This document shows positions 19,801-36,999 of a DNA stretch of 64,000 bases, piece by piece. Position numbers and translations under genes: made by a program. The notes below the pieces were generated by a model. It was not told where the DNA came from, did no database searches, and saw only the letters and a list, made by a program, of their open reading frames with translations. Position 1 is the stretch's first letter. Each line of letters opens with the position of its first letter. Origin of the DNA: Williamsia sp. 1138 (GTDB lineage Bacteria > Actinomycetota > Actinomycetes > Mycobacteriales > Mycobacteriaceae); assembly GCF_002095435.2 (NCBI RefSeq), contig NZ_MJEJ02000054.1:62001-126000 (forward strand), given 5' to 3'.

Positions 19801-22800
19801 TCGCGACACCGCCTCGTCGACACCCGAGCCGAATGCGCGGAGCGTGCGAACCACGGTGTCGAGAACCCGCTCTGCCGCTGCAGCGCTGACACCGTCCGGG
19901 TAGTACGACAATTCCAGCGACAGTTCCGCGGCGGGTAGAATCCGCAGCGTGAGAGGATAGTTCGTCGAGTCACGCCATTGCCTGAGTCCGACAGAAAGTC
20001 CGCTTGCTCGTTCGAGTCCGGCGAGCACGGCATCGTCGGAGACGTAGTTCTCCATCACCACAAGAGTGTCGAACAGGACCGATTGCCCGCTCAGCCGGTG
20101 CATCTCGGTGAGCGAGGTGTGATGGTAATCCAAGACCGACACGTTGAACCGGTGCGTCGACTCGATCACGGACCCGATCGTCATGTCCGGCGTCAACGAC
20201 ACCACCGTGGGGATGGTGTTGACGAACATTCCGATCGCCGTCTCGATATCGTCCACGTCCTCCGAACGGCCCGACACCACAGAACCGAAGACTGCTGTGC
20301 TCGAACCTGTGTGGGCGTGCAAGGTGACCGCCCACGCAGCCTGGATCACCGTGTTCAGGGTGACGCCCCGACGCCCCGCGAGGGCCGTCAGCGCCGCCGT
20401 CTCTTCTGTGGTGAGGGCCGCGACGGTGGTGTCGGGAAAGCCTCGATCATCCGGTTGCCACCCGCCGGCGATGAGAGTCGGTTCGTCGACAGCGGCGAGT
20501 GCCGCACGCCAGGTCTGTGCTGCCTGTTCGTCATTCGCGGCGGCCAGCCGGCGCGCGAAGCGGTGGAACGTGTCGTCGTCACGCGAGGCCACCGATTCCG
20601 GGTCCTGGTAGGCGCGGAGCAACTCGTGCACGAGCAATGGGGTGGACCAGCCGTCCAGCACCGCGTGGTGCGAGGTGAGGACGAGGACGCTGGTCGTGTC
20701 ATCCACCAGTGCCACGGCCAGCCGGACCAGCGCGGCGGTCTCGCGGCCACCACCCTCGCCCGCACCGGGTTCGAGATCGAATCCCCGGGCGCGGTCCCCA
20801 TCGGCGAATCGCTCCAGGTCGCGATCCGGGTCGTCACTGGCACGCAGATCGACAACGGTCACCGGTTGGTGCATGGCCGTGGGCACCACCGCAACCGGTG
20901 TCCCGTCGTTGCCGGCCCGCACGGTCACCCGCAACTGCGGGTGCTTTGCCGACACGGCCAGCCACGCGTCCTGCAACCGCTCCTGAGAAAGCGGGCCGAT
21001 CACGTCCCTGATGTGTTGCGCGACATACAGGTCCACACCACCGTGACCCACACCCAGTTGCGAATGGAACAGCACCCCGCGCTGCGCCGGGGTCAAGGGG
21101 TGGACGTCAGCCAGTTCTCCGAGCTCATCTTCCCACTCCCGGATGGCGGCCGACGAGATGTTCACGAGCGGAAAGTCGCTCGGCGAGTGCGAGAGGACGG
21201 CCCCGGGGCCCGTGGCATGCTCGGCGAGTGCGGACAGCGCCTCGACCCACAACTCGGCGAGCTCCTGTACCGCATGCTCGTCGATGACGGTGTGCACGTA
21301 GGCGACATCTGCGACCAGCCGAACCCCGTTGTCCGAGACGATCGATCGCGCGGTGATGTCCACGATCGCCGGCGCCGGGGCCTCATCGGCGACGTGAAGC
21401 GCGATCCCGCCGGCTTCTGGTGCGGGTCGCCACGACGCGACGTCGTCATCGACGATCGAGAACTGCCCGAGATAGTTGAACGACACCTGCGGGTGGTCGA
21501 GCGACCGCAATACGTCATCGGGGGCCGGCGAGAGGTGACGGAGCACTCCGAACCCGATTCCCTTGTCGGGGATCGCCGCCAGGGTCTCCTTCACCGCGAG
21601 CACTGCGGCCACCAGTCGCTGCGGGGACGGCATCGTCGGGTCGTCGGCCGATACCGGTAGACGCACCGGGTACCACGAGGTGAACCATCCCACCGTCGTC
21701 GACAGGTCGCTGCCGGAGACCACACTCTCCTCGCGGCCGTGCCCCTCGAGACCGAGCAAGATCCCGTGATCGGTCGGTGCGTCGCGCCTGCTGGACCAGA
21801 TCCCGAAGGCCGCCGACAAGGCACCCAGCAGGGCGTCGTTGACGGTGCCCGAGACGATCCGGGGTATGTCGGCCAACAATGCCGCGGACGTCTCACCGGA
21901 GGCGTTCACCGTCACATGCCGCACCTGCTCGTAGCTGTCGCGGCGCGGATCGAGGTGCCGGGCACCCAGTGGTCGCTCCGAAGGATTCGCCATCGACAGC
22001 CACAGCGCCCGTTGCTCTTCGAGCGCGGGAGTACAGGCAGCTGCTGTCAGGGCGTGCGACCAGGCAAGCAGACCTGTGCCCGGCGTCGAGAGAGCCGCAG
22101 CATCGTCGCCTCCCTCGAGTGACACCGCCGCAGCGAGATCGTCACCCAGGATGCGCCATGACACCCCGTCGACGACCAGATGGTGGATCACCACGATCAG
22201 GCGGCCCGTCGCCTCGCCTTCGACAGTGGCCCACCTCGCGCGCCACATCGTGCCGTCGGCCGGATCCAGTGAATGTGCCAGCGTCGCTGTGATCTCGGTG
22301 AGCTGATGTTGCCATCGCTGCGAGCCCCAGTGGGACGTGGCGGCGTCTTCGAGCTCATGATGATCGATTTGCTCTGCGACCGAGTGCGCGGCCGAGCCGA
22401 TCTCGAGCTGAAGTTCGCCGCCACGCTCACCGACCCGCGCTCGCAGCGCGGGGTGCCTGTCGATCAATCTCTCGAACGCACCGCGGAGTTGCGTCGCCGT
22501 CACCGTGGCCGGGCCTGCGAAGACGAAGGTCTGAGCGAACGAATCAAAACCCGCTGCTGCGGAGAGTCGGTGCGCTATCGGCATGAGCGGGGCGCTTGCC
22601 CCGAACCCGTGCTCCTCGGCCGCGTCTCGTCCGAACACCTCTGGTTCTTGGGCGACGGGCACGGCCGAAGCCGCGATCCGAGCAACCGTGCGCTGTTCGA
22701 ACATCTGCTTTGCGGTGGTCACCAACCCGACGCGTCTGGCGTGAGACACCGCCTGGATCGAGACGATGCTGTCGCCGCCCAGCTTGAAGAAGTCATCGTC

Positions 22801-25800
22801 GGCGGATATCGGTGCGTCCGGGCCGAGCCCGAGTACGTCCCGGAACACCGACGCGATCGCAAACTCGTCCTCACTCAGCAGCTCTCGACCGCGTCCGGCG
22901 TGCTCGGCGAGGTCGATGGCCGGCAGAGCGCGTCGGTCCAGCTTGCCGTTCTTCGTCATCGGCAACGCCTCGACCCTGACGAACACCGACGGCACCATAT
23001 AGGCGGGTAGGGCTGCCGCCACCCACTCGTGCAACGCTTCCTCGAGGGGCACGCCATGGGCGTCGGTCCCGGCCCGCGTGCAGTAGTACGCAGCGAGCAG
23101 ATTTCCTGAATCGGGTTGTTCGATCGGGACGACGGCCGCGGCCGTCACGGCCGGATGTGACTGAACGGCAGCGGTGACCTCGCCGGGTTCGATTCGGAAA
23201 CCGCGTATCTCGACCTGATCGTCGATCCGGCCGAGGTATTCGAGCTCGCCGTTCTCAGTCCACCTCGCCAGGTCGCCGGTTCGGTACATCCGGTCGCCCG
23301 ACCCATTCGGGTTCGCGATGAAACGGGTTGCCGTCAACGCGGCACGCCCGCGGTAGCCGCGGGTCACCTGGGGTCCCGCGACGTAGAGCTCACCCACCAC
23401 CCCCACGGGTGCGCACTGCAGATGCGGGGTGAGTACGTCGGCGCGCAGACCGGGCAGCGGTGTGCCGATCATCGACCCGCCGCCGGCCGCCCGGTCGCCG
23501 GTCACCACCGCTTCGGTCACGTGCACGGTGGTCTCGGTGATGCCATACATGTTGATGAGGGTCGGCCCACCACGATGTCGCTGCAGCCATGACGACAGCC
23601 TCGTCACATCCAGTGCTTCACCGCCGAATACCACCGTCCGCAAGGCGAGTTCCGCCGTGTCCGGGCGGGCGTCCTCGACGTCGGACAACGCGTAGAACGC
23701 CGACGGCGTCTGATTCAGGACGGTCACCTGGTGCCGGCGGATCGCGTCACCGATCAGGATCGGGTCGCGCACGACCTCCTGGTCGACGACGACCAGGGTC
23801 GCACCGGTTGTCAGGGGCGCCCACTGTTCCCACACGGAGAAGTCGAATGCGTAGGAATGCAAAAGGATCCACACATCGTCGGCGGAGAAGTCGAAGTGCT
23901 GCGTGGCGTCGAAGAGAGCGATGACGTTGGCATGGCTGACCACAACGCCCTTCGGGACCCCGGTGGTGCCCGAGGTGTAGATCAGATATGCAGCGTCTTC
24001 TGCCACCAGGCGCCGGGAGCGGTCGACGTCCAGGACCGGCGCAGGCGACAGCTCGGAGACCGCGCGGCGCGTTCCGGAATCGGCCAGATCGACGACCGGG
24101 ATACCTTCGTCGGCGAGAACCGCATCGATCTCCGGGGCTCTTCCGGTGTTCGTGACGACGACCCGCGGCGCGGCATCACCGAGTAGAAACCGGATCCGAT
24201 CGGCCGGATTGTCCGGGTCGATCGGAACATACACGGCGCCGGCTCGCATGACCGCTGCCAACATGACGGGCAACCATTCGTCGCGGCCTGCCATCACCGC
24301 AACACGATCTCCGGTGCGCGTTCCGATCGAGATCAGATATCGTGCAACCTGATTCACCAACTCATCGAACTCGGTGTAGGTCAGTCGGGTATCGGCGCCG
24401 GCGATGACGGCCACACGCGTCGGGTGGTGGTGCGCGGCCGACTGCAGGCGAGCGTCGATCGTCGCGGCGGGCCGGGAGATCCCGCCGAGCACCGGAGCCT
24501 GCGGGATCGCAGCCGGCTGCGACGCCCACTCGGTGAGCGATGCGAGGTCGGTGTGATCAGCGGGTGAGAGTGCCCGCAGCGGATCATCACCTGTCAGCGA
24601 CGACAACTCGCGGACTGCACTGACGACACGGCGCAGGTGTACTCGCATCGCCGCCTCGTCGTATCTCGACGGGCCTGCCTTCAACTCGAGCACGAACCCG
24701 TTGACCGGGTCGTTGTAGACGAACAGATTCAGGTCTTCGGCGGGTCCGGTGGCCAGGGCCTCGGTGACGGCCGGCACGCCGTCGAAGTTCGCGTTGTAGT
24801 CGAAGACATGCAAATTGATCTGCGACAGTGCCGGTTTGACACCGTCGGTCACCTCGACGAGCCGCTCACCACGGAACCGCTGGTGCCGACGGATGTCCTT
24901 CAGCCCGGCCGTCGCCCGCGTGAGCACGTCTGCGACCCGGTCGCGAGGGTTGAACTCGAGTTCGAGCGGCAGGATGTTCACCTGCATCATCGGCGTCAGC
25001 AGTCCCGCTCCGCGACGCGCCATCACGGGGATACCGATGGTCGTCGCGGTATCGCCGTTTCTCACCGCGTTGTACCAGCCCCACAGGGCGATCATGGCGT
25101 CGCCCCAGGTCGCTCCCAGAGGTTTGGCGAGTCTGTCGACACGATCGATGATGTCGCGGTCCAATTTCACCGAGACGCTGATCGGCATCTCCGGTTCCGG
25201 CGCCGCCGGGACCTGCACTCGTCCCTCGTGACCTCGCGATTCGACGAGGTCACGCCAGTACGTGCGGTCACGCTCGGCAACGTCACTGCTTTCGTAGTCG
25301 TCTTCGGCTGCGATCATCTCCGCGACCGTGCCGAACGTGGACTCCGGCACCGACTCACCCCTCGCCAAGGCGGTGTACACCTGCGCCACTCGACGGGTCA
25401 GCAACGAGATCGCGTAGGCGTCGAGAAGTATGTGGTGCGTCCTGAACTCCCACGCGAGCCGGCCGTCGGTCAACCGCCACACGCTCGTGTCGAAGAGCTG
25501 ATCACCATCGAGTGGGATCGGCTCTGACACCCGAACTCTCGCCTGAGCGCGAAGGGCATCGGCGGTGCCGTCGAACATCGACACGGCGATGGCGGGTGGA
25601 TTCTCCGGTGGCTGGGCGAGCTGACGCGGGCCGCTGTCGTCGACCTCGAACACGGTCCACAACACCTCGGCGTCGTGCACCGCCACCCCGACCGCACGCG
25701 CGAGCAAGTCGGCGTCGGCCCCCTCGGGCAACCAGGCGATCTGCCCGATGGAGAACACCGGTGACTGCGGCGCAAGCTCTTGAGCAAACCAGATTCCCCA

Positions 25801-25833
25801 CTGGGCGTGAGACAACCTCAGACGACGTTCCAT
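4801..25833 (-). CDS. Giant siderophore NRPS, 7,010 residues, five complete modules, one anomalous module, thioesterase
   Basis: Domains in order with approximate motif residues. Module 1: starter-type C (HHILLDA, 135), A ([10 protein letters not shown], 624; code DFWNVFMVHK, close to Thr), T (GGDSIV, 1021), E ([10 protein letters not shown], 1219; FNYLGQF). Module 2: C (HHAVLDGW, 1724), A (2203; IDTVTSYGDK, no Asp235, beta-Ala-like), T (2599). Module 3: C (HHAFVDEW, 2808), A (3298; DPADLLIIEK, acidic, perhaps Arg-like), T (3688). Anomalous module 4: C (HHIVFDE, 3881), then about 400 residues without A or T motifs. Module 5: C (EHLLMDGW, 4746), A (5217; DAEDFLLINK, ornithine-like), T (5607). 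Module 6: C (HHAFVDEG, 5808), A (6309; DVPNMAIEVK, unassigned), T (6699). Thioesterase: GWSYGAH, 6838. It starts 75 bases after panD and follows mbtH, which it probably needs. Family and domain order are clear; the substrate calls are hand-read inferences. Confidence 0.97.
12040..13240 (-). other. Degenerate region inside the NRPS in place of A-T of module 4 (relic epimerisation-like domain)
   Basis: Roughly residues 4200-4600 of the large NRPS separate condensation domains 4 and 5. No adenylation motif, carrier serine motif or HHxxxDG is present. The stretch starts like the C-lobe of the epimerisation domain in module 1 ([12 protein letters not shown] against [13 protein letters not shown]) and ends like that domain's tail ([16 protein letters not shown] against [16 protein letters not shown]). 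The next condensation domain opens with LPVSPLQEG, the class that normally follows an epimerisation domain. Inference: a former C-A-T-E module lost A-T and the epimerisation domain decayed, or the region now serves as a docking platform. The reading frame is intact and base composition does not change. Confidence 0.6.
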
Positions 25834-25907: not shown

Positions 25908-26315
25908 CTACCGACTCGGTAATTGGTCGGTGGACCCGGGGACCGGCTGTGCCGGATCGTTTCCGAGAGCGACGATCGAGTTGTCGGCGTCGACGTGGAC
26001 GACCTTCGGTTCGTGGACGATCACCTCGGCCTGCTCGAGTTGCAGAAACGACATGATGATCACGAGGTCTCCGGGATTGACCAGGTGTGCCGCAGCGCCG
26101 TTGATGCAGATGACTCCCGAATCGGCCGCTCCGGTGATCGCGTAGGTCTCCAACCGTGCACCGTTGGTGACGTCGACAACCTGGACCTTCTCGCCTTCCA
26201 CCAGATCTGCCGCCCTCATGAGCGTCTCGTCGATGGTGATCGATCCGACGTAGTGCAGGTCGGCCTGGGTGACGGTGGCACGGTGGATCTTGCCGTTGAC
26301 CAGAGTGCGGAGCAT
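25908..26315 (-). CDS. panD: Aspartate 1-decarboxylase within the siderophore operon
   Basis: Makes beta-alanine and CO2 from L-aspartate using a self-generated pyruvoyl cofactor. The 135-residue protein has the self-cleavage site Gly24-Ser25 (HYVGSITID), Lys9 in NGKIHRA, and the [13 protein letters not shown] segment, all diagnostic. PanD normally sits with panC for pantothenate synthesis. Here it lies between mbtH and the NRPS with gaps of 44 and 74 bases, so it should be co-transcribed under iron control. The second NRPS adenylation domain lacks the alpha-amine-binding Asp and looks beta-alanine-like, which gives the enzyme an obvious job as precursor supplier. It could also simply support pantothenate supply; another panD elsewhere in the genome would support the specialised role. 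Confidence 0.95.
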
Positions 26316-26359: not shown

Positions 26360-26614
26360 TCAGGTGACCTGACGCGCAACCGGTTCGGCCGCATCGCTTT
26401 CCATGGCATCTCGCAGGCTCTTGGGTCGCAGGTCAGTCCAGTGTTCCTCGACGAAATCGAGGCATGACTGACGACTCGTCTGCCCGCCTTGGCCGTGCAC
26501 GATGTGCCAACCCTCCGGCACGGCCGCGAACGTCGGCCACAACGAATACTGTTCCTCGCCGTTGATCAGGACGTAGAACTTTCCGTCCTCGTCGTCAAAG
26601 GGATTGGTAGACAA
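26360..26614 (-). CDS. MbtH-like NRPS chaperone protein
   Basis: An 84-residue member of the MbtH family, small proteins that bind and stabilise or activate NRPS adenylation domains. The family signature is complete: [14 protein letters not shown], then [15 protein letters not shown] chose a TTG start at 26614 ([11 protein letters not shown]) because GAAGGAG lies about nine bases upstream; longer reading frames add an arginine-rich, non-homologous leader. It overlaps the 3' end of the monooxygenase gene by 20 bases in another frame, suggesting translational coupling. It lies immediately before panD and the NRPS, its expected client. Confidence 0.95.
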
Positions 26615-27938
26615 GATTCTTTTCTCCTTCTGTGCGCGCGTCGCCGGTGTGGACGGCACGCTCCGCCGTCGCCTGCGACCTCTTGGTCGCGACGAATGAT
26701 TCGACCAATTCACCGGAGCGGACGGCCAGATTGGACAGCAGGGTCGAGGTCAGCCCGTGGGTGTGCTCGGTGTTGCCCTGCAGGTAGATGCCGCCGGCGA
26801 TCTTCCCGCTGGTCGCCACCCGATAGTCGCGGTCGACGACGGGTCGGCCCTTGTCGTCCACGTCGCAGGCGTCTGCCAGCGGACCGAGCAGGTCACCCAG
26901 ACCGGTCGGCTCGAACCCGGTCGCGAAGACGACTGCGTCGCAGTCGAGATCGTCGACACCCTGCGAGGGTCGATGCGTGACCCGAACCGCCACACCGGTG
27001 TCGGTTTCGCGCACGCTGCTCATCTCTGACGCGCCGCGTACGAACAAGCGGCGCCGACCCGAAACCCGTTCGCCGTACTCACGCCGGTACAGCTCCTCGA
27101 TCAGTGGAGGGTCAACAGCCGAGTAGTTGGTGCCGCGGTGGTAGCTGAGCAATTGCGCGCGAAGCTCTTCGGAGGATTGGTGGAAGTCGACGACGCCGTC
27201 CGGATCGAAGATTCGATTGGCGTACGGGCTGTCGTCGGCAGGTGTGTACCCGTATTTCCCGAACACCGCGTGGATCTCCGCGTCAGGATAGGACTCGTGC
27301 AGGTACGCTGCCACCTCCGCCGCACTCTGGCCGGCTCCGACGACCACGAGCCTCTGGTGCTGCAAGGGCGGGAGCTCCTGCAGGTGCTGCAGCAGCCGAT
27401 GATTGTGGAATACGCGTTGTCCCAGTCGCACACCGTCAGGAACCTTCGCGCGCAGACCACCGGCCAACACCACGTTGCGCCCCTTGACGGAACGGGAATC
27501 GGAGACCTTGACCTCGAAGGTGTCCCCCGACCACGTCACCGAGTTCACCTCCGCGCCATAGGTGACCGGCAGATCGACCTTCCCCGCGGCCCACTCCAGG
27601 TAGTCGTGGAACTCCAGCCGGGTCGGGAAGAAGCTCTGCTGATTGATGAAGTCGGTCAACCTGCCACGATCAGAAAGGTATTTCAGGAACGAGAACTCGC
27701 TACACACGTCCCGTTGCGTGGCGAGGTCTTTCAGGAACGAGATCTGCATCGTCGTGCCGGGCAACAACATTCCTCGATGCCAGCCGAATCGCAGTTGCTT
27801 TTCCACAAAGCTGGCCGTGATCCGATCTGCAGGATCCGCCTGCTCATTGTGTTCGGAAATAGCGATCGCCAACGCAAGGTTCGATGGGCCGAAGCCCACG
27901 CCCACCACGTCGACCGGAGCACTGCTGTCGAAGCTCAC
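26595..27938 (-). CDS. L-ornithine N5-monooxygenase (SidA/PvdA/IucD family)
   Basis: A flavin- and NADPH-dependent hydroxylase that converts L-ornithine to N5-hydroxyornithine, the first step to a hydroxamate ligand. The 447-residue length is typical. The N-terminal FAD site [14 protein letters not shown], the [15 protein letters not shown] block that follows it in this family, the central NADPH site [14 protein letters not shown] and the late ATGF motif are all present. Ornithine rather than lysine is inferred from the formyltransferase and the formyl-hydroxyornithine-like A domain. The assigned start has GGAGGAG about nine bases upstream. It follows the ligase gene after a 118-base gap holding a hairpin and a weak iron-box-like sequence, so a secondary promoter is possible. 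Confidence 0.92.
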
Positions 27939-28056: not shown

Positions 28057-29703
28057 TCAGCGCGCTCGCTGACCGCGTTTGCTGACCTTGCCCACGGGCG
28101 TCCGCTCGAACTCATCGACCAGTTCGACCACATCCGGCAGCTTGTACGCAGCAAGACCTTTGTCCCGCAGAAACTTTCTGATTCCGGCCAACGTCAATGT
28201 CGACGTGTCACCGCCCTTGCGCGGCATCACAAACGCTTTGGTGCGCTCACCGAGCATCTCGTCAGGAATGCCCACGACGGAGACGTCGTGCACGGCGTCG
28301 AACGCGAGGATCAGGTTCTCCACTTCTTCAGGGGCGACCTTCTCTCCGCCCCTGTTGATCTGATCCTTCGAGCGGCCGACAACCGTCAGGTATCCGCGTT
28401 CGTCCTCGCGAACGATGTCCCCGGTCCGATAGAACCCGTCCGCCGTGAAACTCTGCGCGTTGTGCTCGGGCGCTCGGTAGTAGCCGCGGATGGTCGAGGG
28501 GCCCCGGGTCAGCAGATGCCCCGCGTCACCCCGAGCGACCTCGTGCCCGTCATCGTCGACGACGCGCACCTCGTCGGCGGCCAGGGTCGGTCGGCCCTGC
28601 CGCGTCGTGATCGTGTCCTCGTCTTCGTCGAGTCCGGTGAATGTCGTGAGCCCCTCGGCCATACCGAAACTCTGTTGGAGAACCGCCCCCAGTTCGGAGC
28701 GAACCCGACGCGCGGCTTCGGCGCTGAATCTCGCTCCCCCGACCCGCAGAACGCGAAGGCTCGTCAGGTCGTAGTCGTCCTTCAGCGAGGAGTTGAGCCA
28801 GACCATGGCGAGAGGAGGAACCACCGATACGTCGGTCACGGCGTGCTCGGCGATGAGCGGGAAGGCGACATCGGGACTACCGCTGAGGACCGGCACGATC
28901 GTGCCGCCCGCACTCAGGACACCGAGGAATCCGGGCGACCGCATGGCGAAGCTGTGACAGAGCGGCAGAACTACCAGCTGGACCGTGTCCCCGGTGATCG
29001 CGCACAGCTCGACGCTGGCCCGCACCGACGCCAGGTAGTCCTCGTGGGTGTGCGGTATCACTTTCGGCTGTCCCGTTGTGCCGCCGGACAATTGCAGGAA
29101 GGCGACGTCTGACGGCAACGACCGCCGCCGGCGGGTCGCGATGCCATGGGAGAGCAGTTCCTCCACATCGCGGCCTCCGCCGTCCGCGGACAGCACGACA
29201 GTGTGCTCCAACGTGGGCGACGACGCCGCGAGGTCCCGGGCCAACGCCGCGAAGTCGTTGCCTGCGTGCGATTCGATGGTTATGTACGCCCGGGCCTCGG
29301 TGAACTCCACGAAGTACTCGATCTCGTGACGTCGCAGCGCGGCGAGCGCCAACACCGGAATCGCCCCGACTTCGAAGAGCCCGAACAAGATCGGCACGTA
29401 GTCAGAGACGTTCGGCAGATGCAACACGACCCGATCGCCACGACCGATGCCCAGCCGGGAGAATCCGGCGGCGTAGCCGAGAACTCGTTGCCCCAACTCC
29501 GCGTAGGTGATCCGGCGCTCACCCGCGATGATCGCGATGTGGTCGGGAGCGCGATCGACGACCTCGAACAACATCTCACCGAGGGTCTGATCGGCCCAAA
29601 TACCTTCCCTGCGATACCGGGCCGCGATCTCCTCGGGATAGGGGACGACGCCGTCGAGTACAAGTGGGGCGAGTTCAGGACGATCAGAGATGCCGGCGCT
29701 CAT
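28057..29703 (-). CDS. Aryl acid-AMP ligase, probably for 3,4-dihydroxybenzoate (EntE/DhbE fold)
   Basis: A stand-alone adenylating enzyme that activates an aromatic acid with ATP and loads it onto a carrier protein. The 548 residues carry the family core motifs (LSGGTTGQPKVIPHTH, YRTGDIV, RGGEKVAPEEVE, GKVSKRG). In DhbE the pocket reads H-N-Y-x-x-x-S, where Asn235 is understood to contact the 2-hydroxyl and Ser240 the 3-hydroxyl of 2,3-DHB. Here it reads H250-S251-F252 and S256: the 2-OH contact is gone and the 3-OH contact remains. Together with the neighbouring 3-dehydroshikimate dehydratase this points to 3,4-dihydroxybenzoate, as with AsbC in petrobactin. The ATG at 29703 overlaps the preceding stop as ATGA. 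Family is sure; substrate is inferred. Confidence 0.88.
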   Translation of the reverse strand: MSAGISDRPELAPLVLDGVVPYPEEIAARYRREGIWADQTLGEMLFEVVDRAPDHIAIIAGERRITYAELGQRVLGYAAGFSRLGIGRGDRVVLHLPNVSDYVPILFGLFEVGAIPVLALAALRRHEIEYFVEFTEARAYITIESHAGNDFAALARDLAASSPTLEHTVVLSADGGGRDVEELLSHGIATRRRRSLPSDVAFLQLSGGTTGQPKVIPHTHEDYLASVRASVELCAITGDTVQLVVLPLCHSFAMRSPGFLGVLSAGGTIVPVLSGSPDVAFPLIAEHAVTDVSVVPPLAMVWLNSSLKDDYDLTSLRVLRVGGARFSAEAARRVRSELGAVLQQSFGMAEGLTTFTGLDEDEDTITTRQGRPTLAADEVRVVDDDGHEVARGDAGHLLTRGPSTIRGYYRAPEHNAQSFTADGFYRTGDIVREDERGYLTVVGRSKDQINRGGEKVAPEEVENLILAFDAVHDVSVVGIPDEMLGERTKAFVMPRKGGDTSTLTLAGIRKFLRDKGLAAYKLPDVVELVDEFERTPVGKVSKRGQRAR

Positions 29704-30554
29704 CGTGACACCCACGCGGACACATCGCCGGCGGGCGTCGCCGTATCTTCGAGGGCTGCGACGATCCTGTGCAGTGCCTCGGCACCGGCCCGGGCCACCT
29801 CGTGCGCCGGACGTTCGCGATAGCCCGGGTTGAAGATCTCGAGCGACAACGGTCCTCGGTATCCCCCGGCGAGGACCGAGGCGATGGGAGCGAGCAGGTT
29901 CATCTCACCTTCACCGGGAAAGCAGCGATGTCCTCGGCTCCATTGCTTGAGCTCCATGGACTTCCACGGCGCATCGGCCAGTTGGAAGAACCCCACCGAC
30001 CCATGCGGAAGCGCGTCGACGGTGTCTGCACCCTCCCCGCGAGAGACCAGATGGAAGGTGTCCACCACCAGCTCCAGTCCTGGATGGTCTGCCTCGCGCA
30101 GCACCTCCCAGGCATCGACGACGGTGCTGATGTGGGTTCCCCAGGCCAGCGCCTCGAACATCACGGTCATACCGTGCTCAACCGCGTTGTCGCCCAGAGC
30201 CGCCAGCTGTTCCACCGACCGGTCCCTACTGCCATCCGCGTCGTCATCGGTGTTGGACACCACCAGGATCGAATCACAGCCGACCTCGTGCATCACCTCG
30301 AGTTCGCGTTCGAAGCGCGAGAGGACGTCCCTGAACTCGCGTCCGGAGACACCTTCGGCCCGCCGAAAAGGTTGGTACAGATCGATGCTCAGTCCGAGAT
30401 CGGCGCACCGGCGGGCACATTCGCTCGTCGACAGCGCGGACTTTCGCAAGTCGTCGTCGAGCAGTTCGATGCCGTCGAAACCTGCCGCCGCGATCGCATC
30501 GATCTTCTCTTCGAGGCTCCCACCCAACGACACCGTCGCCATACAGGTCCTCAT
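29700..30554 (-). CDS. 3-dehydroshikimate dehydratase (AsbF/QuiC/QsuB type), makes 3,4-dihydroxybenzoate
   Basis: A 284-residue TIM-barrel protein of the xylose-isomerase-like superfamily, predicted to dehydrate 3-dehydroshikimate to protocatechuate (3,4-DHB). From the ATG at 30554 the metal-ligand set of the QuiC family is present at the family's own numbering: Glu134 (FEALAWG), Asp165 (VVDTFHLVSRG), Gln191 (FFQLADAP) and Glu239 (LEIFN), with His168 beside them. The start MRTCMATVSLGG resembles Corynebacterium QsuB. The C-terminal dioxygenase-like domain found in some QuiC proteins is absent. Its start overlaps the carrier-protein stop and its stop overlaps the ligase start, both as ATGA, tying it to aryl loading rather than quinate catabolism. 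Generic annotation would call it a sugar-phosphate isomerase/epimerase. Confidence 0.9.
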   Translation of the reverse strand: MRTCMATVSLGGSLEEKIDAIAAAGFDGIELLDDDLRKSALSTSECARRCADLGLSIDLYQPFRRAEGVSGREFRDVLSRFERELEVMHEVGCDSILVVSNTDDDADGSRDRSVEQLAALGDNAVEHGMTVMFEALAWGTHISTVVDAWEVLREADHPGLELVVDTFHLVSRGEGADTVDALPHGSVGFFQLADAPWKSMELKQWSRGHRCFPGEGEMNLLAPIASVLAGGYRGPLSLEIFNPGYRERPAHEVARAGAEALHRIVAALEDTATPAGDVSAWVSR

Positions 30555-30829
30555 GCCTGCTCCGCGCGGGCCGCAGGCGCATCGGCACCCAGGATGACCT
30601 TGATCCAGGGACCGAGCGCAGGTTCGGCGGCGAGCGTCGGAAAGTCTGCGCCTGCAGAGCCTGCGGTGCGCCACTTCTCGATCAAAGACATCAGTCGGAT
30701 GGAGTCGAGACCGGCATCGAACAGGTCCTCATCCATCGACAGGTTCGCCGGCGAAACACCGAGTGCGTCCGCTATGTCGGCGACGACCTGCTGCTGCGAC
30801 AGAGTTGTCGACACATTCTGCTGACTCAA
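30551..30829 (-). CDS. Stand-alone aryl carrier protein
   Basis: A 92-residue phosphopantetheine carrier protein with the attachment serine at about residue 43 in LFDAGLDSIRLMSL, a motif typical of aryl carrier proteins such as the EntB and VibB carrier domains. It should receive the aryl group from the ligase two genes downstream and pass it to the starter condensation domain of the large NRPS. Unlike EntB it has no isochorismatase domain, consistent with a pathway that does not make 2,3-DHB. The start is TTG at 30829, with AAGGAG about eight bases upstream. It is the first gene of the operon, with an iron box about 65 bases upstream. Confidence 0.9.
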   Translation of the reverse strand: MSQQNVSTTLSQQQVVADIADALGVSPANLSMDEDLFDAGLDSIRLMSLIEKWRTAGSAGADFPTLAAEPALGPWIKVILGADAPAARAEQA

Positions 30830-30892: not shown

Positions 30893-30911
30893 CAAGGATA
30901 GCCTAGACAAA
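30893..30911. promoter_or_regulatory. IdeR-type iron box for the main siderophore operon
   Basis: The sequence around AAGGATAGCCTAGACAAA matches about 13 of 19 IdeR consensus positions on the minus strand, with the central TAGGCTA intact. It lies in the 156-base gap between the ABC transporter stop and the carrier-protein TTG, upstream of the whole biosynthetic operon. The spacing leaves room for a normal leader with a Shine-Dalgarno sequence. Confidence 0.7.
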
Positions 30912-30985: not shown

Positions 30986-32788
30986 TCAACTCCCACCGAC
31001 ATCGCCGCGACCGCGCGACCATGCCTTCCAGAGCGCCCCATAGCGTCCGCCGAGGGCCACCAGTTCTTCGTGCGTACCCACCTCGACGATGCGGCCTCGT
31101 TCCATGAAGGCGATTCGGTCCGCGCGCGCGGCTTGACTCAGTCGATGCGCGATGATCAGGGCAGAGCGACCGCGTAGCGCTGCCTGCGCCGACTCCTCGA
31201 GCACCCCTGCCCCGACACTGCCCGCGTCGGCCGTCGCCTCGTCGAGGATGGCCACCTTCGGGTCGAGCAAGACCAGCCGCGCCAGGGCGAGCTGTTGCGA
31301 CTGCATCGGGGTGAGCTGGTGGCCTTCTTGCCCAACAGTCGTTTTCACGCCGTCCGAGAGCTGGCGTACCCACTTCGCGGCACCGACCACGTCGAGTGCC
31401 GACCACAGCTCGTCGTCGGTGGCGTCGGGCGCGGCCATCCGTAGATCGTCACCGAGCGTGCCCGCGAACACATGCACTTCCTGGGTGACCAGCGCGATCG
31501 ACCGGGACAATTGGGTCGGATCGACCGTGGCGATGTCGACGCCTTCGAGGAGCGTCCGCCCGCGGGACGGTTGATGGATACCCGCCACGATGGCCGCGAG
31601 CGTGGTCTTGCCCGCACCCGACGATCCCACGACCGCCACGTGCTCGCCTGCAGCCAAGGTCAACGAGATGTCGTGCAGCACCGTGTGGTCGGCCGAGTAG
31701 CCGTGGGTGATCTCCTGCAATTCCAGCAGCGGCGCCGAAGCGTTGGTGGACCCGTCCGAGGTGGGGGCGACGATGGTCTTGGACTCCTCGATCACCCCGA
31801 CGATGCGGCCGAGAGCGACGGCGCCGGACTGCAGGTCGTCGACGACGAAGAGCAGTTGCCCGATGGGGTCGAACAGCAGCAAGAAGAACAGCATGGCCGC
31901 GGTGACGGCACCGATGGTGAGGGCATCGGCATCCACAAGGGTGAATCCGACGATCAGAATGGTTGTCATCCCGATGAATTCGCCGAGGTTGACCCTGGCC
32001 CCGAGGCGGCTCTGCAGAACGCTCGCCCGCATCTCCCACCGGACGACCTCCCACGAATGTGAGTCGATCCGTCGGTTCAACGACTCCGAAAGCCGGAAGG
32101 CGTGCACCGATTCGAGCCCACGGATCGCGCCGAGCACGTGGTGGGCGCGATCGGCCGTCGAAGCCCGGACCGCGGCATACAGCCCCGGCGCGCGCCGCAG
32201 ATACATGCGGATCCCGTTGATGTACACCGGCAGGATCACGACCAGCACGATCAAGAACCGCCAGTCGAGCGTGGCGAGACCGAGGAACGTGACGCCCACG
32301 GTGAAGGCCGCGGTCAGCAACGTCGGGACCGCCGAGCCGATGGCCTCGCTGACGGTGCTCACGTCGGCCGTCGCGCGCGACACCAGGTCGCCACTGCCCG
32401 CCGTCTCGACGCGATTGAGTTGCAGTCGCAGTGAAGCATCGATCATCGCTTCTCGTAGATTGGCAAGAATCGATTCGAAGATCTTCGCGGACAGCATCAC
32501 CCCGAGACCGGCGAACGCAGCGGCACCGATCGCCGAGGCGGCCATGATCCCGGACAGGCGCCAGATTTCCGAGGCCTCGCCGTCGTCATTCGCGATATCG
32601 ATGATGGTGCCGAGGGAGCGTGGGGTGACCAGGCCCAGGGCCGCCGCGACGGTCATGATCACGGCGAGCAGCACCAGTTGCCAGGTGTGCCTGCGCATTT
32701 CCCGCCCCAGGTAACCCATCGTCACCTTGAAGTCGGCGATCGCGAGTTTGTTGCCCGTGGGTGCCGCCGGCACTGTAGTGGCGCTCAT
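30986..32788 (-). CDS. ABC transporter half-transporter with fused ATPase, catalytic Walker subunit
   Basis: A 600-residue fused permease-ATPase of the exporter fold: six predicted membrane helices, then an ATPase. Walker A (GSSGAGKTT) and Walker B with catalytic Glu (AILDEATAD) are intact, but the signature motif is degenerate (LTPMQSQQ instead of LSGGQ). Its ATG overlaps the stop of the upstream partner gene as ATGA, so the two should form a heterodimer. The pair could export the siderophore or, like mycobacterial IrtAB, import the ferric form despite an exporter fold; a separate siderophore-interacting flavoprotein lies nearby, whereas IrtA carries such a domain fused. The direction of transport cannot be read from the sequence. 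Confidence 0.85.
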   Translation of the reverse strand: MSATTVPAAPTGNKLAIADFKVTMGYLGREMRRHTWQLVLLAVIMTVAAALGLVTPRSLGTIIDIANDDGEASEIWRLSGIMAASAIGAAAFAGLGVMLSAKIFESILANLREAMIDASLRLQLNRVETAGSGDLVSRATADVSTVSEAIGSAVPTLLTAAFTVGVTFLGLATLDWRFLIVLVVILPVYINGIRMYLRRAPGLYAAVRASTADRAHHVLGAIRGLESVHAFRLSESLNRRIDSHSWEVVRWEMRASVLQSRLGARVNLGEFIGMTTILIVGFTLVDADALTIGAVTAAMLFFLLLFDPIGQLLFVVDDLQSGAVALGRIVGVIEESKTIVAPTSDGSTNASAPLLELQEITHGYSADHTVLHDISLTLAAGEHVAVVGSSGAGKTTLAAIVAGIHQPSRGRTLLEGVDIATVDPTQLSRSIALVTQEVHVFAGTLGDDLRMAAPDATDDELWSALDVVGAAKWVRQLSDGVKTTVGQEGHQLTPMQSQQLALARLVLLDPKVAILDEATADAGSVGAGVLEESAQAALRGRSALIIAHRLSQAARADRIAFMERGRIVEVGTHEELVALGGRYGALWKAWSRGRGDVGGS

Positions 32789-34590
32789 CGCGAGCCTCCG
32801 TTCGAGTTCGCATACGCCGCCTGTGCGCCGGCGAGATCGCCCTGATAGACCAGGACCGCGCCGTCGAAGACGATCACCTGATCGGAAGCCTCCAGCAAGG
32901 CAGGTGAATTGCTGAAGACGACGGTGGTCCGCCCCTGCCGCGCCTGCGAGAGTCGCTGCGCGACGGTGGCCTCGGTGACCGAATCGACCGCGGTGGTCGG
33001 GTCGTCGAGTACGAGCACCGCGGAGTCGGCCGCAAGCGCCCTGGCAAGACTCACCCGCTGCCTCTGACCACCGGAGAGCATGCGTCCTGCCTCCCCGACC
33101 GGCGTGTCGAGACCGAGCGGCAGCACCTCGGCGACGTCATCACACGCGGCCGCGAAAATCGCCCTGGTGACCCGGGAGTCACGGTCCGGCAGGTCTCCCG
33201 CTCCGGCTCCGATGTTGTCGAGCACTGTTCCCTCGAAGAGATCGGGCGCGTGCGGCACGGCGCGAACCAGCTGCTGCGAGATGTCGTTGTCCAGGTCGAA
33301 CAGGTCGACGTCACCCACCGTGACCCGTCCTGCCTCGGGAACGACTTTGCGGGCGAGCACCGACGTCAGGGCGTCGGTGGTCTCGGGTTCGCAGATGACG
33401 GTGATCAGACCCGACGGCGGCAACTCCAGATCGAGATCGTGGACGGGCCCGAGTGTGAAGTTCCGGAAGGCGACCGCGCCGCGCGCATCTCGCACGCGGC
33501 CGGTCTGCGCCGACGGCTCGGCCTGCAGCACCGACAGCACCCGCTTGGCACAGGGCACAGCGGTGTTCCAGACCGCACCGAAGTTGGTGCCCAGGTTGTT
33601 CAGCGGTCCCATGATGAACTGCGTCAGGCCCACCACCGTGATCAGCGCACCCAGGCTCATCGCCCCGTTCAGCGCCATCAGACCGGCGGCGATGCCGACT
33701 GCGACCACGAAGAGCGCCGAGACCATCTGCATGACACCGATGTACGCCCCCTGGGATCGTCCGGCCCGGACGGCGCCGTCCCTCGCTCGGCGGCTCGCAA
33801 CCCGATAGCGCCGGCCTGCTTCGCCTTCGGCGCCGAGGCCCTTCACGATCCTGAAGCCCGCGACCAGGTCAGCGGCAGTCCCGGCGGCCTCACCGGCCGC
33901 CTCCTGCTCGTGCTCGGTGCGCGCGCGGAGTGGGCCACCGCTGAGGTCCAGAATCCACAGCAGCGTCGGAGCGCCGAGCAGGATTGCGAGCCCCAGCGGC
34001 CACGAGATGAACAGCAGCACACCACCTGCCACCAGCACCGCCGCCATCTCACCGACCGGGAACACGGCCAGGAACACCGCATACGAGAGGCGATTGACGT
34101 CCGAGGTCGCAATGTTCAGCGACACCCCCGGCAGTCGCGCCGGCCCGGCCATGCCCATCGGGTCGAGAATGCGGTCGGTCACGCGCATCCGGAAGTGATG
34201 CTCGACCATGGTCTGGCCGTAGACCGCCAACCGTTCACCGAAACGCCAGGTGTGGGACAGCAGCACGAAGTTCGCGGCGAGCGCGATCACCCAGATCACC
34301 AGGGACCCGACGTCGCCGGTCGCGACCGCACGGTCGATGGCGATGCCCATGATCACCGGGACGAGTGCCTCACCGACAAAGTGGCCGATCATCAGGACCA
34401 TCGCGGGCAGGGTGTACTTGCCGGCACCGAAAACGGTCCGCACGGCCAGTTGTCGCGGTGTGGTCTCCGCGTCGACCCTGATCTCTTTGCCGCGGACAGG
34501 ATCAGCCGGCGGAACGAACCAGACCGGCCATCGGGTGCCGGATCTGTATGAGTCGGATTCCTCCTGACGCAACATCGCGTCGGTGTCCAC
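32785..34590 (-). CDS. ABC transporter half-transporter, partner subunit with destroyed Walker A
   Basis: A 601-residue fused permease-ATPase. The ATPase half has a canonical signature (LSGGQRQRVSLARAL) but the Walker A position reads CEPETTDA, without the glycines or the essential lysine, and Walker B has Asp in place of the catalytic Glu (LVLDDPTTAVD). This complements the downstream partner exactly: one composite site is complete (partner Walker A/B plus this signature), the other fully dead. I prefer the GTG at 34590 (MDTDAMLRQEE) because GGGGGAA lies just upstream. A GTG at 34629 would run the coding region into a dyad that looks like an operator. It is the first gene of a two-gene unit in the siderophore island. 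Confidence 0.83.
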   Translation of the reverse strand: MDTDAMLRQEESDSYRSGTRWPVWFVPPADPVRGKEIRVDAETTPRQLAVRTVFGAGKYTLPAMVLMIGHFVGEALVPVIMGIAIDRAVATGDVGSLVIWVIALAANFVLLSHTWRFGERLAVYGQTMVEHHFRMRVTDRILDPMGMAGPARLPGVSLNIATSDVNRLSYAVFLAVFPVGEMAAVLVAGGVLLFISWPLGLAILLGAPTLLWILDLSGGPLRARTEHEQEAAGEAAGTAADLVAGFRIVKGLGAEGEAGRRYRVASRRARDGAVRAGRSQGAYIGVMQMVSALFVVAVGIAAGLMALNGAMSLGALITVVGLTQFIMGPLNNLGTNFGAVWNTAVPCAKRVLSVLQAEPSAQTGRVRDARGAVAFRNFTLGPVHDLDLELPPSGLITVICEPETTDALTSVLARKVVPEAGRVTVGDVDLFDLDNDISQQLVRAVPHAPDLFEGTVLDNIGAGAGDLPDRDSRVTRAIFAAACDDVAEVLPLGLDTPVGEAGRMLSGGQRQRVSLARALAADSAVLVLDDPTTAVDSVTEATVAQRLSQARQGRTTVVFSNSPALLEASDQVIVFDGAVLVYQGDLAGAQAAYANSNGGSR

Positions 34591-34627
34591 TACATTCCCC
34601 CAGCCGTTGTTTGTGAGCGTGACCACC

Positions 34628-34646
34628 ACCCTAGAACGCTAAGGGT
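34628..34646. promoter_or_regulatory. Candidate operator upstream of the ABC pair
   Basis: ACCCT-N9-AGGGT is an imperfect 19-base dyad about 40 bases upstream of the preferred GTG of the ABC gene and just after the merR stop. MerR regulators bind dyads of about this size within long-spaced promoters, so the neighbouring regulator is a natural candidate. Confidence 0.35.
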
Positions 34647-36101: not shown

Positions 36102-36980
36102 TTACAGGCCTGCCCTCTCGAGGGCGTCGTCGAACTCCTCGCTGGCGATCTTCTCACTCTTGCCCTCGGCAATCGCCGTCGAGTACACCGAGAACAGTTC
36201 GGCACCAACCTCTTCGAACTTGCGGGCCCAGGCCTCGCCGTCGAAGCGCCAGTAGCCGATGATGTCGCACTGATCGGCCTTCCATCCGTACTGCTTGCGT
36301 AGGTGCTTGCGAGCCGTCCGCGACGCCTTGGCCTCGGCAGCGAACCAGCAGTAGCCGCGGCCGTCCGTGTGCACGAACTCCTCGACGGCGTCACCGAGCC
36401 TGCTCTCGCCGAATCCGTTGCCACTGCCCACTTTTGCGATCACCTCGACGTCGGCACGCTTCGGCAGGTACGCGAGATCCGCGTCGTCGCACACCTCGAC
36501 GATGGCCGTCACCCGGGGATTCGCGGGAAGCTCCTCGATGATGCGGGCGAGCGCGGGCAGTCCGGCGAGATCGGCCACCAGCAACTGCCATTCGGTGGTG
36601 GGCTCCGGCCGATACCAGGACCGGGCGTAGGACATCGCGACCTCCTCGCCGATCTCCGCGCGCTGAGCCCACAGGGTGGCAGTGCCGTGATCGTGCACCA
36701 CGAAGTCGATGGTCATCACGCCCGTCGACCGGTTCAGGTGGCGGACGGAGTAGTTCCGCCCTTCGGGCATCGGATCGATGTCGTAGTAGCTCCAGACACC
36801 GTCACGGTTCTCCATCGCAGGCGCCTTGCGCTCGCCGGGCTCAGGAAAATAGATCCCGACGGCCGCGTCGGCCACATCCGGCACCTGCAGCTGGACGAGA
36901 TCGTCGACTGCGAAGACGATTCGGATCAGCCGGGGGTTCAGCGCTGTCTTCTCGACAACGCGTCCAAACGAAAATCCCAT
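36102..36980 (-). CDS. Siderophore-interacting protein, ferric-siderophore reductase (ViuB/SIP family)
   Basis: A 292-residue cytoplasmic flavoprotein of the FAD-binding-9/SIP family, predicted to release iron by reducing ferric siderophore with NAD(P)H. The FAD-binding RNYSVRHL motif lies near residue 77, the following GTATLWAQRAEIGEEV is the phosphate-binding stretch, and the C-terminal SIP segment includes GYCWFAAEAKASRTARKHLRK and GYWRFDGEAWA. An iron box touches its ATG, so it should be induced by iron starvation with the biosynthetic genes. It probably frees iron from the siderophore made by this cluster. Confidence 0.93.
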   Translation of the reverse strand: MGFSFGRVVEKTALNPRLIRIVFAVDDLVQLQVPDVADAAVGIYFPEPGERKAPAMENRDGVWSYYDIDPMPEGRNYSVRHLNRSTGVMTIDFVVHDHGTATLWAQRAEIGEEVAMSYARSWYRPEPTTEWQLLVADLAGLPALARIIEELPANPRVTAIVEVCDDADLAYLPKRADVEVIAKVGSGNGFGESRLGDAVEEFVHTDGRGYCWFAAEAKASRTARKHLRKQYGWKADQCDIIGYWRFDGEAWARKFEEVGAELFSVYSTAIAEGKSEKIASEEFDDALERAGL

Positions 36981-36999
36981 GCAGTGAAGGCTACCCTAA
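36981..36999. promoter_or_regulatory. IdeR-type iron box at the start codon of the SIP gene
   Basis: AAGGCTACCCTAA forms the centre of a box matching about 13 of 19 consensus positions. It abuts the ATG at 36980. On the minus strand TAGCCT at -13 to -8 is a TANNNT -10 element, the same hexamer at the same distance as at the partial NRPS, suggesting leaderless transcription under iron control. Confidence 0.75.

What the first reader, a model, noticed from the sequence alone, without database searches (positions are those of the whole stretch)
28057..30829. A three-gene cassette that should make and load 3,4-dihydroxybenzoate, not the usual 2,3-isomer
Seen: carrier protein, TIM-barrel enzyme and aryl-AMP ligase are joined by ATGA overlaps. 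The TIM-barrel protein has the QuiC-type metal ligands at family numbering (Glu134, Asp165, Gln191, Glu239). The ligase pocket reads H-S-F-x-x-x-S instead of H-N-Y-x-x-x-S, losing the Asn that contacts a 2-OH and keeping the Ser that contacts a 3-OH. Known: AsbF makes 3,4-DHB for petrobactin. No isochorismate or salicylate synthase gene is in the window. Inference: a 3,4-catecholate starter on a large actinobacterial NRPS that also uses hydroxamates, a combination I do not recognise from known siderophores of this group.
Basis: partly seen in the sequence, partly recalled or inferred. Interest (0 to 1): 0.9.

Follow-up and report, generated by a model that had tools for sequence, protein, structure and literature searches.

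The report
3,4-catechol loading cassette for a siderophore
A bacterium of the genus Williamsia appears to start a large iron-scavenging peptide with 3,4-dihydroxybenzoate instead of the usual 2,3-isomer, using a borrowed dehydratase and a loading enzyme whose binding pocket has changed to match, and the same pairing recurs in several other actinobacterial genera.

Summary
The cassette is real: an aryl carrier, a QuiC-type 3-dehydroshikimate dehydratase and an aryl-AMP ligase form an ATGA-coupled operon in a catechol/hydroxamate NRPS siderophore cluster of a Williamsia species. The 3,4-DHB reading is well supported in silico. (1) Metal ligands and neighbouring conserved residues match catabolic QuiC. 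(2) In 20 of 20 genomes with this dehydratase a homologous ligase has Asn235->Ser, Ser239->Arg and Val329->Ser/Gly (DhbE numbering); in BasE, shrinking the residue equivalent to 329 admits C4 substituents. (3) Of 401 family genomes the same 13 hold both full genes; G190 (recoded ligase, flavin monooxygenase, no such dehydratase) and G208 (interrupted dehydratase, no ligase found) are exceptions. (4) One genome of another family (G606) fuses carrier and dehydratase. (5) The one Williamsia of 9 without the dehydratase has an unaltered ligase pocket beside 2,3-DHB genes. (6) No EntA match in the window's genome. Corrections: an isochorismate synthase homologue lies 8.3 kb left of the window, beside the same cluster in 5 of 9 Williamsia, and a salicylate synthase elsewhere; neither tracks the cassette. 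A 2026 survey of NRP metallophores does not list 3,4-DHB. Nothing was assayed; the recoded ligases form one clade.

The parts
30893..30911 (.). IdeR/DmdR-like iron box (13 of 19 matches to a recalled consensus), 63 bases upstream of the carrier gene
   Evidence: 7 sites (two overlapping) scoring >=13 in 86,000 bases against 0.9 expected in Markov-chain sequences
30551..30829 (-). stand-alone aryl carrier protein (92 aa)
   Evidence: Pfam PP-binding; PDB matches are aryl carrier domains of PchE, EntB, HMWP2
29700..30554 (-). QuiC-type 3-dehydroshikimate dehydratase, single TIM-barrel domain (284 aa), ATGA-coupled to the carrier gene
   Evidence: NCBIfam QuiC 253.7 bits over profile 1-261 of 635; 5hmq E 6.7e-72; ligands E134 D165 Q191 E239
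28057..29703 (-). aryl-AMP ligase (548 aa), DhbE family, recoded pocket S251 R255 S256 S345 T353, ATGA-coupled to the dehydratase gene
   Evidence: TIGR02275 625.7 bits; pocket
26595..27938 (-). lysine/ornithine N-monooxygenase (hydroxamate formation)
   Evidence: Pfam PF13434 324.4 bits
26360..26713 (-). MbtH-like protein
   Evidence: Pfam PF03621
25908..26315 (-). PanD-type aspartate 1-decarboxylase (beta-alanine supply)
   Evidence: TIGR00223 159.9 bits, cut-off 106
4801..25833 (-). NRPS 1, 7010 aa: starter condensation domain, five adenylation domains, terminal thioesterase
3770..4738 (-). iron-siderophore substrate-binding protein
   Evidence: Pfam PF01497
2997..3710 (+). formyltransferase (probably for N-formyl-N-hydroxyornithine)
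   Evidence: Pfam PF00551
1..2939 (-). N-terminal part of NRPS 2 (2078 aa; continues 3.3 kb beyond the left edge), two adenylation domains
30986..32788 (-). ABC exporter half 1
32785..34629 (-). ABC exporter half 2
36102..36980 (-). siderophore-interacting (ferric reductase) protein
   Evidence: Pfam PF04954, PF08021; iron box at 36981

Best explanation
The three genes are a starter-unit cassette. The TIM-barrel enzyme dehydrates 3-dehydroshikimate to 3,4-dihydroxybenzoate; the ligase adenylates 3,4-DHB and loads it on the aryl carrier protein; the first condensation domain of the 7010-aa NRPS takes it from there as the N-cap of a peptide that also carries hydroxamate ligands. The cassette descends from a 2,3-DHB system: the dehydratase took over supply from EntC/B/A, and the ligase pocket lost the Asn that binds a DHB hydroxyl while opening room at C4. 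Shown: genes, order, homology, pocket residues, co-occurrence. Inferred: activities, direction of loading, product.
For: QuiC homology with Q61, R64, E134, D165, H168, Q191, S206, R207, R210, E239 and N242 invariant in 16 of 16 clade rows and in 65-66 of 66 QuiC rows. The siderophore-type dehydratases form one side of a branch, SH-aLRT 100, against 28 QuiC rows. Ligase N235S, S239R and V329S/G (DhbE numbering) in 20 of 20 dehydratase-bearing genomes, against 1 of 26 other ligases. BasE V336A/G, by my mapping position 329, raises kcat/KM for 4-methylsalicylate 76- and 89-fold (PMC12005286, passages). The same 13 genomes in family draws of 401 hold full dehydratase and ligase. In G606 an aryl carrier and the dehydratase are one open reading frame. 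Sister Williamsia G106: no dehydratase, HNF..SS pocket, isochorismatase and EntA-type gene adjacent. No EntA match in the window's genome. Carrier is of aryl type; NRPS 1 opens with a condensation domain.
Against: No enzyme was assayed. All recoded ligases form one clade, so the co-change counts as about one event. G190 has the recoded ligase but only a fused QuiC. G208 has an interrupted dehydratase and a carrier but no ligase at E<=1e-160. G720, dehydratase-bearing, also has an EntA-like gene on another contig. An isochorismate synthase homologue lies 36 kb from the cassette and stays beside this gene block in 5 of 9 Williamsia. In 7 of the 20 genomes the ligase is not next to the dehydratase, and in 3 of those they are on different contigs. 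Fourteen dehydratase positions differ consistently from QuiC, two of them beside metal ligands.
Confidence: 0.83

Rival explanations
1. The siderophore still uses 2,3-DHB: the isochorismate synthase homologue beyond the left edge feeds an EntB/EntA-like route and the ligase tolerates its pocket changes; the TIM barrel is a bystander.
For: Isochorismate synthase homologue at C45:52689-53735, 232 bits, just over the TIGR00543 cut-off of 224.75. It sits beside the siderophore importer genes in G000, G119, G059, G076 and G106.
Against: No EntA at E<=1e-60 in the window's genome, while the same search finds it in G106 and in 4 of 5 other comparison genomes (at most 68 first-look candidates scored per genome). 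The gene does not track the cassette: it is in G106, which has no cassette, and it is missing from that place in G010 and G040, with no match over the cut-off anywhere in G010, G040, G092 or G131, which keep the dehydratase and ligase. It is the window genome's only match over the cut-off, so a menaquinone role would explain it (inference).
Confidence: 0.08
2. The dehydratase makes 3,4-DHB but the ligase loads a derivative (for example an O-methylated or mono-hydroxy benzoate), so the finished starter is not a 3,4-catechol.
For: A siderophore-interacting protein fused to an O-methyltransferase domain is encoded in the cluster (C45:56856-58730), with a similar fusion in G190. EntE N235 variants accept many benzoates (review PMC10296737, passages). 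In G190 the recoded ligase is followed by a flavin monooxygenase of unknown substrate.
Against: Ser240, a hydroxyl contact, is kept in 20 of 20 recoded ligases. A methylated catechol would be a poor iron ligand (general knowledge).
Confidence: 0.07
3. The TIM barrel serves quinate/shikimate catabolism and its place in the operon is accidental.
For: Its closest characterised relatives are catabolic QuiC enzymes.
Against: It lacks the second QuiC domain, forms its own clade, lies among siderophore genes in the loci read, overlaps the carrier and ligase genes in 8 of 8 Williamsia loci and is fused to an aryl carrier in G606. Seven of the genomes searched hold it and a separate fused QuiC (G255, G262, G333, G719, G723, G606 list one each, besides fused-only genomes).
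Confidence: 0.02

Closest known systems
Petrobactin asb system (AsbF dehydratase, AsbC ligase, AsbD carrier) of Bacillus; rhodopetrobactin
   Same: A 3-dehydroshikimate dehydratase supplies 3,4-DHB to a siderophore; in asb a ligase and carrier load it (asb gene roles recalled; AsbF and rhodopetrobactin seen in PMC13251462 passages).
   Different: Those are NRPS-independent siderophores. Here the assembly line is a giant NRPS, the dehydratase is of QuiC type and the ligase is of DhbE type.
Enterobactin/bacillibactin starter machinery (EntE/DhbE, EntB aryl carrier, EntF/DhbF)
   Same: Ligase family and aryl carrier are homologous, and the NRPS opens with a condensation domain (likeness to EntF's is recalled).
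   Different: No EntA match in the genome; the ligase lacks Asn235 and Val329; the carrier has no isochorismatase domain; the supply enzyme is a dehydratase.
QuiC of Pseudomonas putida (5hmq) and actinobacterial QuiC/QsuB
   Same: Matches over 260 residues at E 6.7e-72; same metal ligands and the other conserved residues compared.
   Different: Single domain; the second QuiC domain is missing; siderophore neighbourhood.
Actinobacterial mixed catechol/hydroxamate NRPS siderophores (heterobactin, rhodochelin; recalled as 2,3-DHB)
   Same: NRPS, N-hydroxyornithine chemistry and a catechol cap.
   Different: The catechol isomer and its supply; beta-alanine supply gene and beta-alanine-like adenylation codes in the cluster.

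Membership tests
3-dehydroshikimate dehydratase, QuiC type | metal ligands E134, D165, Q191, E239 | tested here: met
   invariant in 16 of 16 clade rows, same as 66 of 66 QuiC rows
3-dehydroshikimate dehydratase, QuiC type | two-domain architecture and curated NCBIfam score (NF042435 cut-off 1200 bits) | tested here: not met
   253.7 bits, profile positions 1-261 of 635 only
3-dehydroshikimate dehydratase, QuiC type | turnover of 3-dehydroshikimate to 3,4-DHB | not testable with these tools
   needs assay
2,3-DHB-AMP ligase (DhbE/EntE) | family homology | tested here: met
   TIGR02275 E 4.9e-188; DhbE E 7.1e-168
2,3-DHB-AMP ligase (DhbE/EntE) | curated TIGR02275 score >=723.55 | tested here: not met
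   625.7; but two ligases with the unaltered pocket (G106 685, G280 644.8) also miss it, so weak evidence
2,3-DHB-AMP ligase (DhbE/EntE) | pocket Asn235, Ser240, Val329 | tested here: not met
   S, S, S; only Ser240 kept
salicylate-AMP ligase | Cys at DhbE position 240 | tested here: not met
   Ser in 20 of 20
2,3-DHB siderophore cluster | EntA plus EntC (as in the antiSMASH rule, PMC12971057) | tested here: not met
   EntA: no match at E<=1e-60 in the window's genome; EntC homologue present
petrobactin-type 3,4-DHB siderophore | NRPS-independent (IucA/IucC) synthetases with AsbF | tested here: inconclusive
   none among the cluster proteins scanned; genome-wide search not run
mixed catechol/hydroxamate NRP siderophore | NRPS, amino-acid N-monooxygenase, siderophore uptake genes | tested here: met
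mixed catechol/hydroxamate NRP siderophore | isolated product with a catechol | not testable with these tools
   needs culture and MS/NMR

The most novel reading that the evidence does not exclude
An unrecognised lineage of NRPS siderophores capped with 3,4-DHB exists in several actinobacterial genera (Williamsia, the Rhodococcus fascians group, Pseudonocardia, Actinomadura, Kineosporia, Microbacterium). It arose by swapping the 2,3-DHB supply genes for a QuiC-derived dehydratase while the ligase pocket was recoded (N235S, S239R, V329S/G); one genome fused the dehydratase to the aryl carrier, much as EntB joins an isochorismatase to its carrier, and in one Rhodococcus-group genome a flavin monooxygenase took the dehydratase's place. 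The recoded triplet can serve as a sequence marker that present metallophore mining lacks.
Probability: 0.7. Interest if true: 0.75.

Novelty: new variant of a known kind. Interest (0 to 1): 0.66.

Why it matters
3,4-DHB is the 'stealth' subunit of petrobactin (wording of the AsbF paper's title, seen in a reference list), which is made without an NRPS. A 2026 genome-mining survey of NRP metallophores (PMC12971057, passages) names the chelators of nearly all known ones, and 3,4-DHB is not among them; its catechol rule (EntA plus EntC) would not flag this route. If right, such clusters are today read as 2,3-DHB or as catechol-free, and the ligase pocket gives a testable code for isomer choice, with a natural control in the sister species that kept 2,3-DHB genes.

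Tried and rejected
A viral-contig scan for the dehydratase found no relative. TIGR02275 score as a discriminator was rejected because two ligases with the unaltered pocket also miss the cut-off. Kineochelin (PMC13238742; abstract, section 2.3 and a term search seen) was considered as a related product and rejected: it uses salicylate, and the word dehydroshikimate does not occur. Adenylation codes of the third, fourth and fifth domains of NRPS 1 gave no assignment I would stand behind. Structure prediction was not run.

Limits: searches scored only the three best first-look candidates in each genome; of the 41 genomes beyond the 13, ligase pockets were read in 7 (G190, G106, G280, G204, G036, G142, G145). 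Paper searches cover an open-licence library; I found there no paper on 3,4-DHB in an actinobacterial NRPS siderophore, but most subscription papers are not held.
Full report
WHAT IS THERE. The window is positions 62001-126000 of contig C45 in a 6.08 Mb genome. The nearest named relative is Williamsia soli C17: its contig NZ_JAFRDR010000001.1 has the same length, 1,013,368, as G119:C11, and G119 lists as the window's genus. On the minus strand lie a 92-aa carrier (30551-30829), a 284-aa TIM-barrel protein (29700-30554) and a 548-aa ligase (28057-29703); both junctions are ATGA. Overlapping junctions are conserved in 8 of 8 Williamsia loci: flagged ATGA at both junctions in four, while in the other four (W. 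muralis type) the printed sequence shows ATGA at the first and GTGA at the second, which the script's flag missed because it took a later ATG. An IdeR-like box sits 63 bases upstream of the carrier at 30893-30911. Seven such sites (two overlapping) score 13 or more in 86,000 bases against 0.9 expected; five of the seven lie directly upstream of siderophore genes (binding protein, NRPS 2/formyltransferase, carrier, SIP). The consensus is recalled, and the best box upstream of the carrier scores 11-12 in six of seven relatives and 15 in one.

THE DEHYDRATASE. NCBIfam's QuiC model matches at 253.7 bits, but only over its first 261 of 635 positions, so the curated cut-off (1200) is not met. The closest solved structure is 5hmq at E 6.7e-72 (the record calls it 4-hydroxyphenylpyruvate dioxygenase; PMC9324987 names 5HMQ as QuiC, passage). 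Among the positions I compared over 16 clade rows and 66 QuiC rows, Q61, P62, F63, R64, E134, D165, H168, Q191, D194, R207, R210, E239 and N242 are the same letter in all rows, and S206 in all but one QuiC row; 14 other positions differ consistently between the two groups, among them 133 and 166 next to metal ligands. A quick tree of 44 rows puts the 16 clade rows on one side of a branch with SH-aLRT 100; 28 of the 65 lower-ranking loci were used. In the genome-contig scan (80 loci kept of 419) 15 loci have 61-93% identity and the other 65 have 49% or less; the four of these 65 that I read (L085, L086, L095, L098) have long fused frames and no siderophore gene that I recognised.

A FUSION. In G606, a genome of another family in the order, the re-check showed that the dehydratase (61% identity) is the second half of a 362-aa open reading frame whose first half is an aryl carrier: Pfam PP-binding at 19.7 bits, just under its cut-off of 20.8, and EntB's carrier region in the PDB at E 2.1e-4. 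A carrier joined to the enzyme that makes the acid to be loaded is independent support for the pathway reading. Outside Williamsia a separate carrier-like frame was found in 6 of 9 named 20-kb loci (L074, L075, L076, L079, L080, L081; not L077, L078, L082), so the tight three-gene order is a Williamsia trait.

THE LIGASE POCKET. In DhbE numbering the window ligase has H234, S235, F236, R239, S240, S329, T337, F339. In 20 distinct genomes with the dehydratase: S235 20 of 20, R239 20 of 20, S240 20 of 20, position 329 Ser in 14 and Gly in 6. Of 26 comparison ligases (23 from loci, 3 from PDB) 25 have N235, 25 lack R239, and 329 is V in 23 and L, M, S in one each; the odd one out at 235 and 239, and the S at 329, is L197 of G190. 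The BasE paper (PMC12005286, passages) puts the C4 carbon of DHB 3.6 A from Val336 and reports that V336A and V336G raise kcat/KM for 4-methylsalicylate 76- and 89-fold and for 4-fluorosalicylate 13- and 8.5-fold. Six BasE pocket residues map to DhbE at a constant offset of 7, so Val336 corresponds to position 329; this mapping is my inference. The recoded ligases thus carry naturally the kind of change that engineering used to admit a C4 substituent. Those mutants were tested on salicylates, not on 3,4-DHB.

CO-OCCURRENCE. In family draws of 401 genomes, dehydratase matches of 62% identity or more over nearly the whole protein occur in 13 and ligase matches of 65% or more in 13: the same 13 handles. 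Two genomes fit less well. G190 has a ligase with the recoded pocket (57% identity) but only a fused QuiC; its ligase gene is followed in the same direction by a PF01494 flavin monooxygenase, and the careful tree nests it inside the recoded clade on a long branch. G208 has an aryl carrier and a dehydratase stretch of 59% identity over 187 residues that continues in another frame, among siderophore genes, but no ligase at E<=1e-160. Outside the family, the six named genomes tested (Actinomadura x2, Pseudonocardia x2, Kineosporia, Microbacterium) and G606 each hold a 60-66% ligase; dehydratase and ligase share a contig in four of these seven, about 16 to 41 kb apart, and lie on different contigs in three. 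In the phylum draw (396 genomes, E<=1e-150) 6 had a ligase match; the other five have N235.

THE NATURAL CONTROL. Of 9 Williamsia genomes held, 8 have the dehydratase and the recoded ligase. The ninth, G106, has no dehydratase match at E<=1e-20; its 58% ligase reads HNF..SS with V329, and beside it lie an isochorismatase-domain protein and an EntA-type dehydrogenase. G106 also has the gene block of the window cluster on contig C1 (SIP, exporters, N-monooxygenase, MbtH, PanD, formyltransferase, importer genes), but without cassette and large NRPS between exporters and N-monooxygenase. EntA (TIGR04316, E<=1e-60) was found in 6 of 26 genomes: 1 of 20 with the dehydratase (G720, another contig, below cut-off) and 5 of 6 without the siderophore-type one (G106, G827, G963, G1047, G820; not G848, whose ligase is of salicylate type). 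The window's genome has none at that threshold. In the ligase trees the recoded clade lies with the 2,3-DHB ligases, apart from the salicylate ligases. The recoded ligases are one clade, so this is consistency from roughly one event.

THE ISOCHORISMATE SYNTHASE. C45:52689-53735, 8.3 to 9.3 kb beyond the left edge, encodes an isochorismate synthase homologue (232 bits, cut-off 224.75; DhbC model 316.8 bits, cut-off 486). It stands between a 644-aa gene and the importer genes in G000, G119, G059, G076 and G106. It is missing from that place in G010 and G040, and G010, G040, G092 and G131 have no match over the cut-off anywhere. So it is present in the Williamsia without the cassette and absent from four with it: it does not track the cassette. 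Menaquinone supply is the simpler role (inference), though its place beside siderophore genes leaves some doubt. A separate cluster on C35 has a salicylate synthase and a salicylate-type ligase, HNF..AC.

THE ASSEMBLY LINE. NRPS 1 (4801-25833, 7010 aa) opens with a condensation domain and ends with a thioesterase; five adenylation domains are visible. NRPS 2 (2078 aa) straddles the left edge and has two. Read by alignment to the first domain, the codes are DFWNVGMVHK (NRPS 1 A1) and DINYWGGIGK (NRPS 2 A1), which I recall as threonine and formyl-hydroxyornithine codes of coelichelin, and IDTVTSYGDK and IDTTISSGDK, which resemble recalled beta-alanine codes; a panD gene lies in the cluster. An N-monooxygenase, a formyltransferase, MbtH, exporters, a binding protein and, left of the window, a FepCDG-like importer complete the set. 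The predicted product is a 3,4-DHB-capped peptide with beta-alanine and hydroxamate units; the order of the two NRPSs is not settled.

NOVELTY. The eLife 2026 survey (PMC12971057, passages) names the chelating groups of nearly all NRP metallophores without 3,4-DHB; petrobactin, AsbF and protocatech* do not occur in its main text. The mBio 2026 paper (PMC13251462, abstract and passages) links 3,4-DHB to an NRPS-independent cluster and mines dhb genes for its actinobacterial one. Searches showed no NRPS siderophore of actinobacteria with 3,4-DHB; the library misses most subscription journals. I file it as a new variant of a known kind: known enzyme families in a combination that changes the chelator.

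Noticed in passing
window 25908-26315 and NRPS codes at 4801-25833 and C45:58703-64939: A PanD-type aspartate decarboxylase lies in the cluster and two adenylation domains have shifted codes (IDT....GDK) like recalled beta-alanine codes; PanD is also next to the ligase in Actinomadura craniellae (G719). Suggests dedicated beta-alanine supply for the peptide.
   Followed up: partly
L188:6600-7685 (G606): Aryl carrier and QuiC-type dehydratase in one 362-aa open reading frame.
   Followed up: partly
L203:8626-9843 (G190): A relative with the recoded ligase has a PF01494 flavin monooxygenase after it and no siderophore-type dehydratase: a possible second swap of the aryl-acid supply.
   Followed up: partly
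C45:56856-58730 (window -5144 to -3270); L203:5087-6934: Siderophore-interacting protein fused to an O-methyltransferase domain; homologues of this length in the Williamsia clusters read to that point and in G190.
   Followed up: no
L072, NZ_JNYV01000011.1: A contig labelled Kitasatospora arboriphila NRRL B-24581 has the same length (196,034) as G092:C11, which lists as the window's genus; the record looks mislabelled or contaminated and is Williamsia.
   Followed up: partly
G010, G040, G092, G131 (W. muralis type): No isochorismate synthase over the TIGR00543 cut-off in four Williamsia genomes; the source of isochorismate for menaquinone there is unclear.
   Followed up: no
C45:53808-55742 (window -8192 to -6258): A 644-aa protein with only a weak sigma-70 region 4 match in Pfam, conserved at 70-94% identity in the Williamsia blocks read.
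   Followed up: no
C45:55735-56658 (window -6265 to -5342): A 307-aa ORF whose residues 11-86 match the start of AMP-binding enzymes and whose remainder has no Pfam match; homologues in G119, G010, G059 and G076.
   Followed up: no
NRPS 1 residues about 4200-4600 and NRPS 2 residues about 1680-2078: Two stretches of about 400 residues; the NRPS 2 end had no Pfam match and the NRPS 1 stretch matched only at the start of the next condensation domain; possibly degenerate epimerisation or condensation domains.
   Followed up: partly
L205:10870-11783 (G208): An aryl carrier gene and a dehydratase gene interrupted by a frame change among siderophore genes; possibly a decayed or misassembled copy.
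   Followed up: partly
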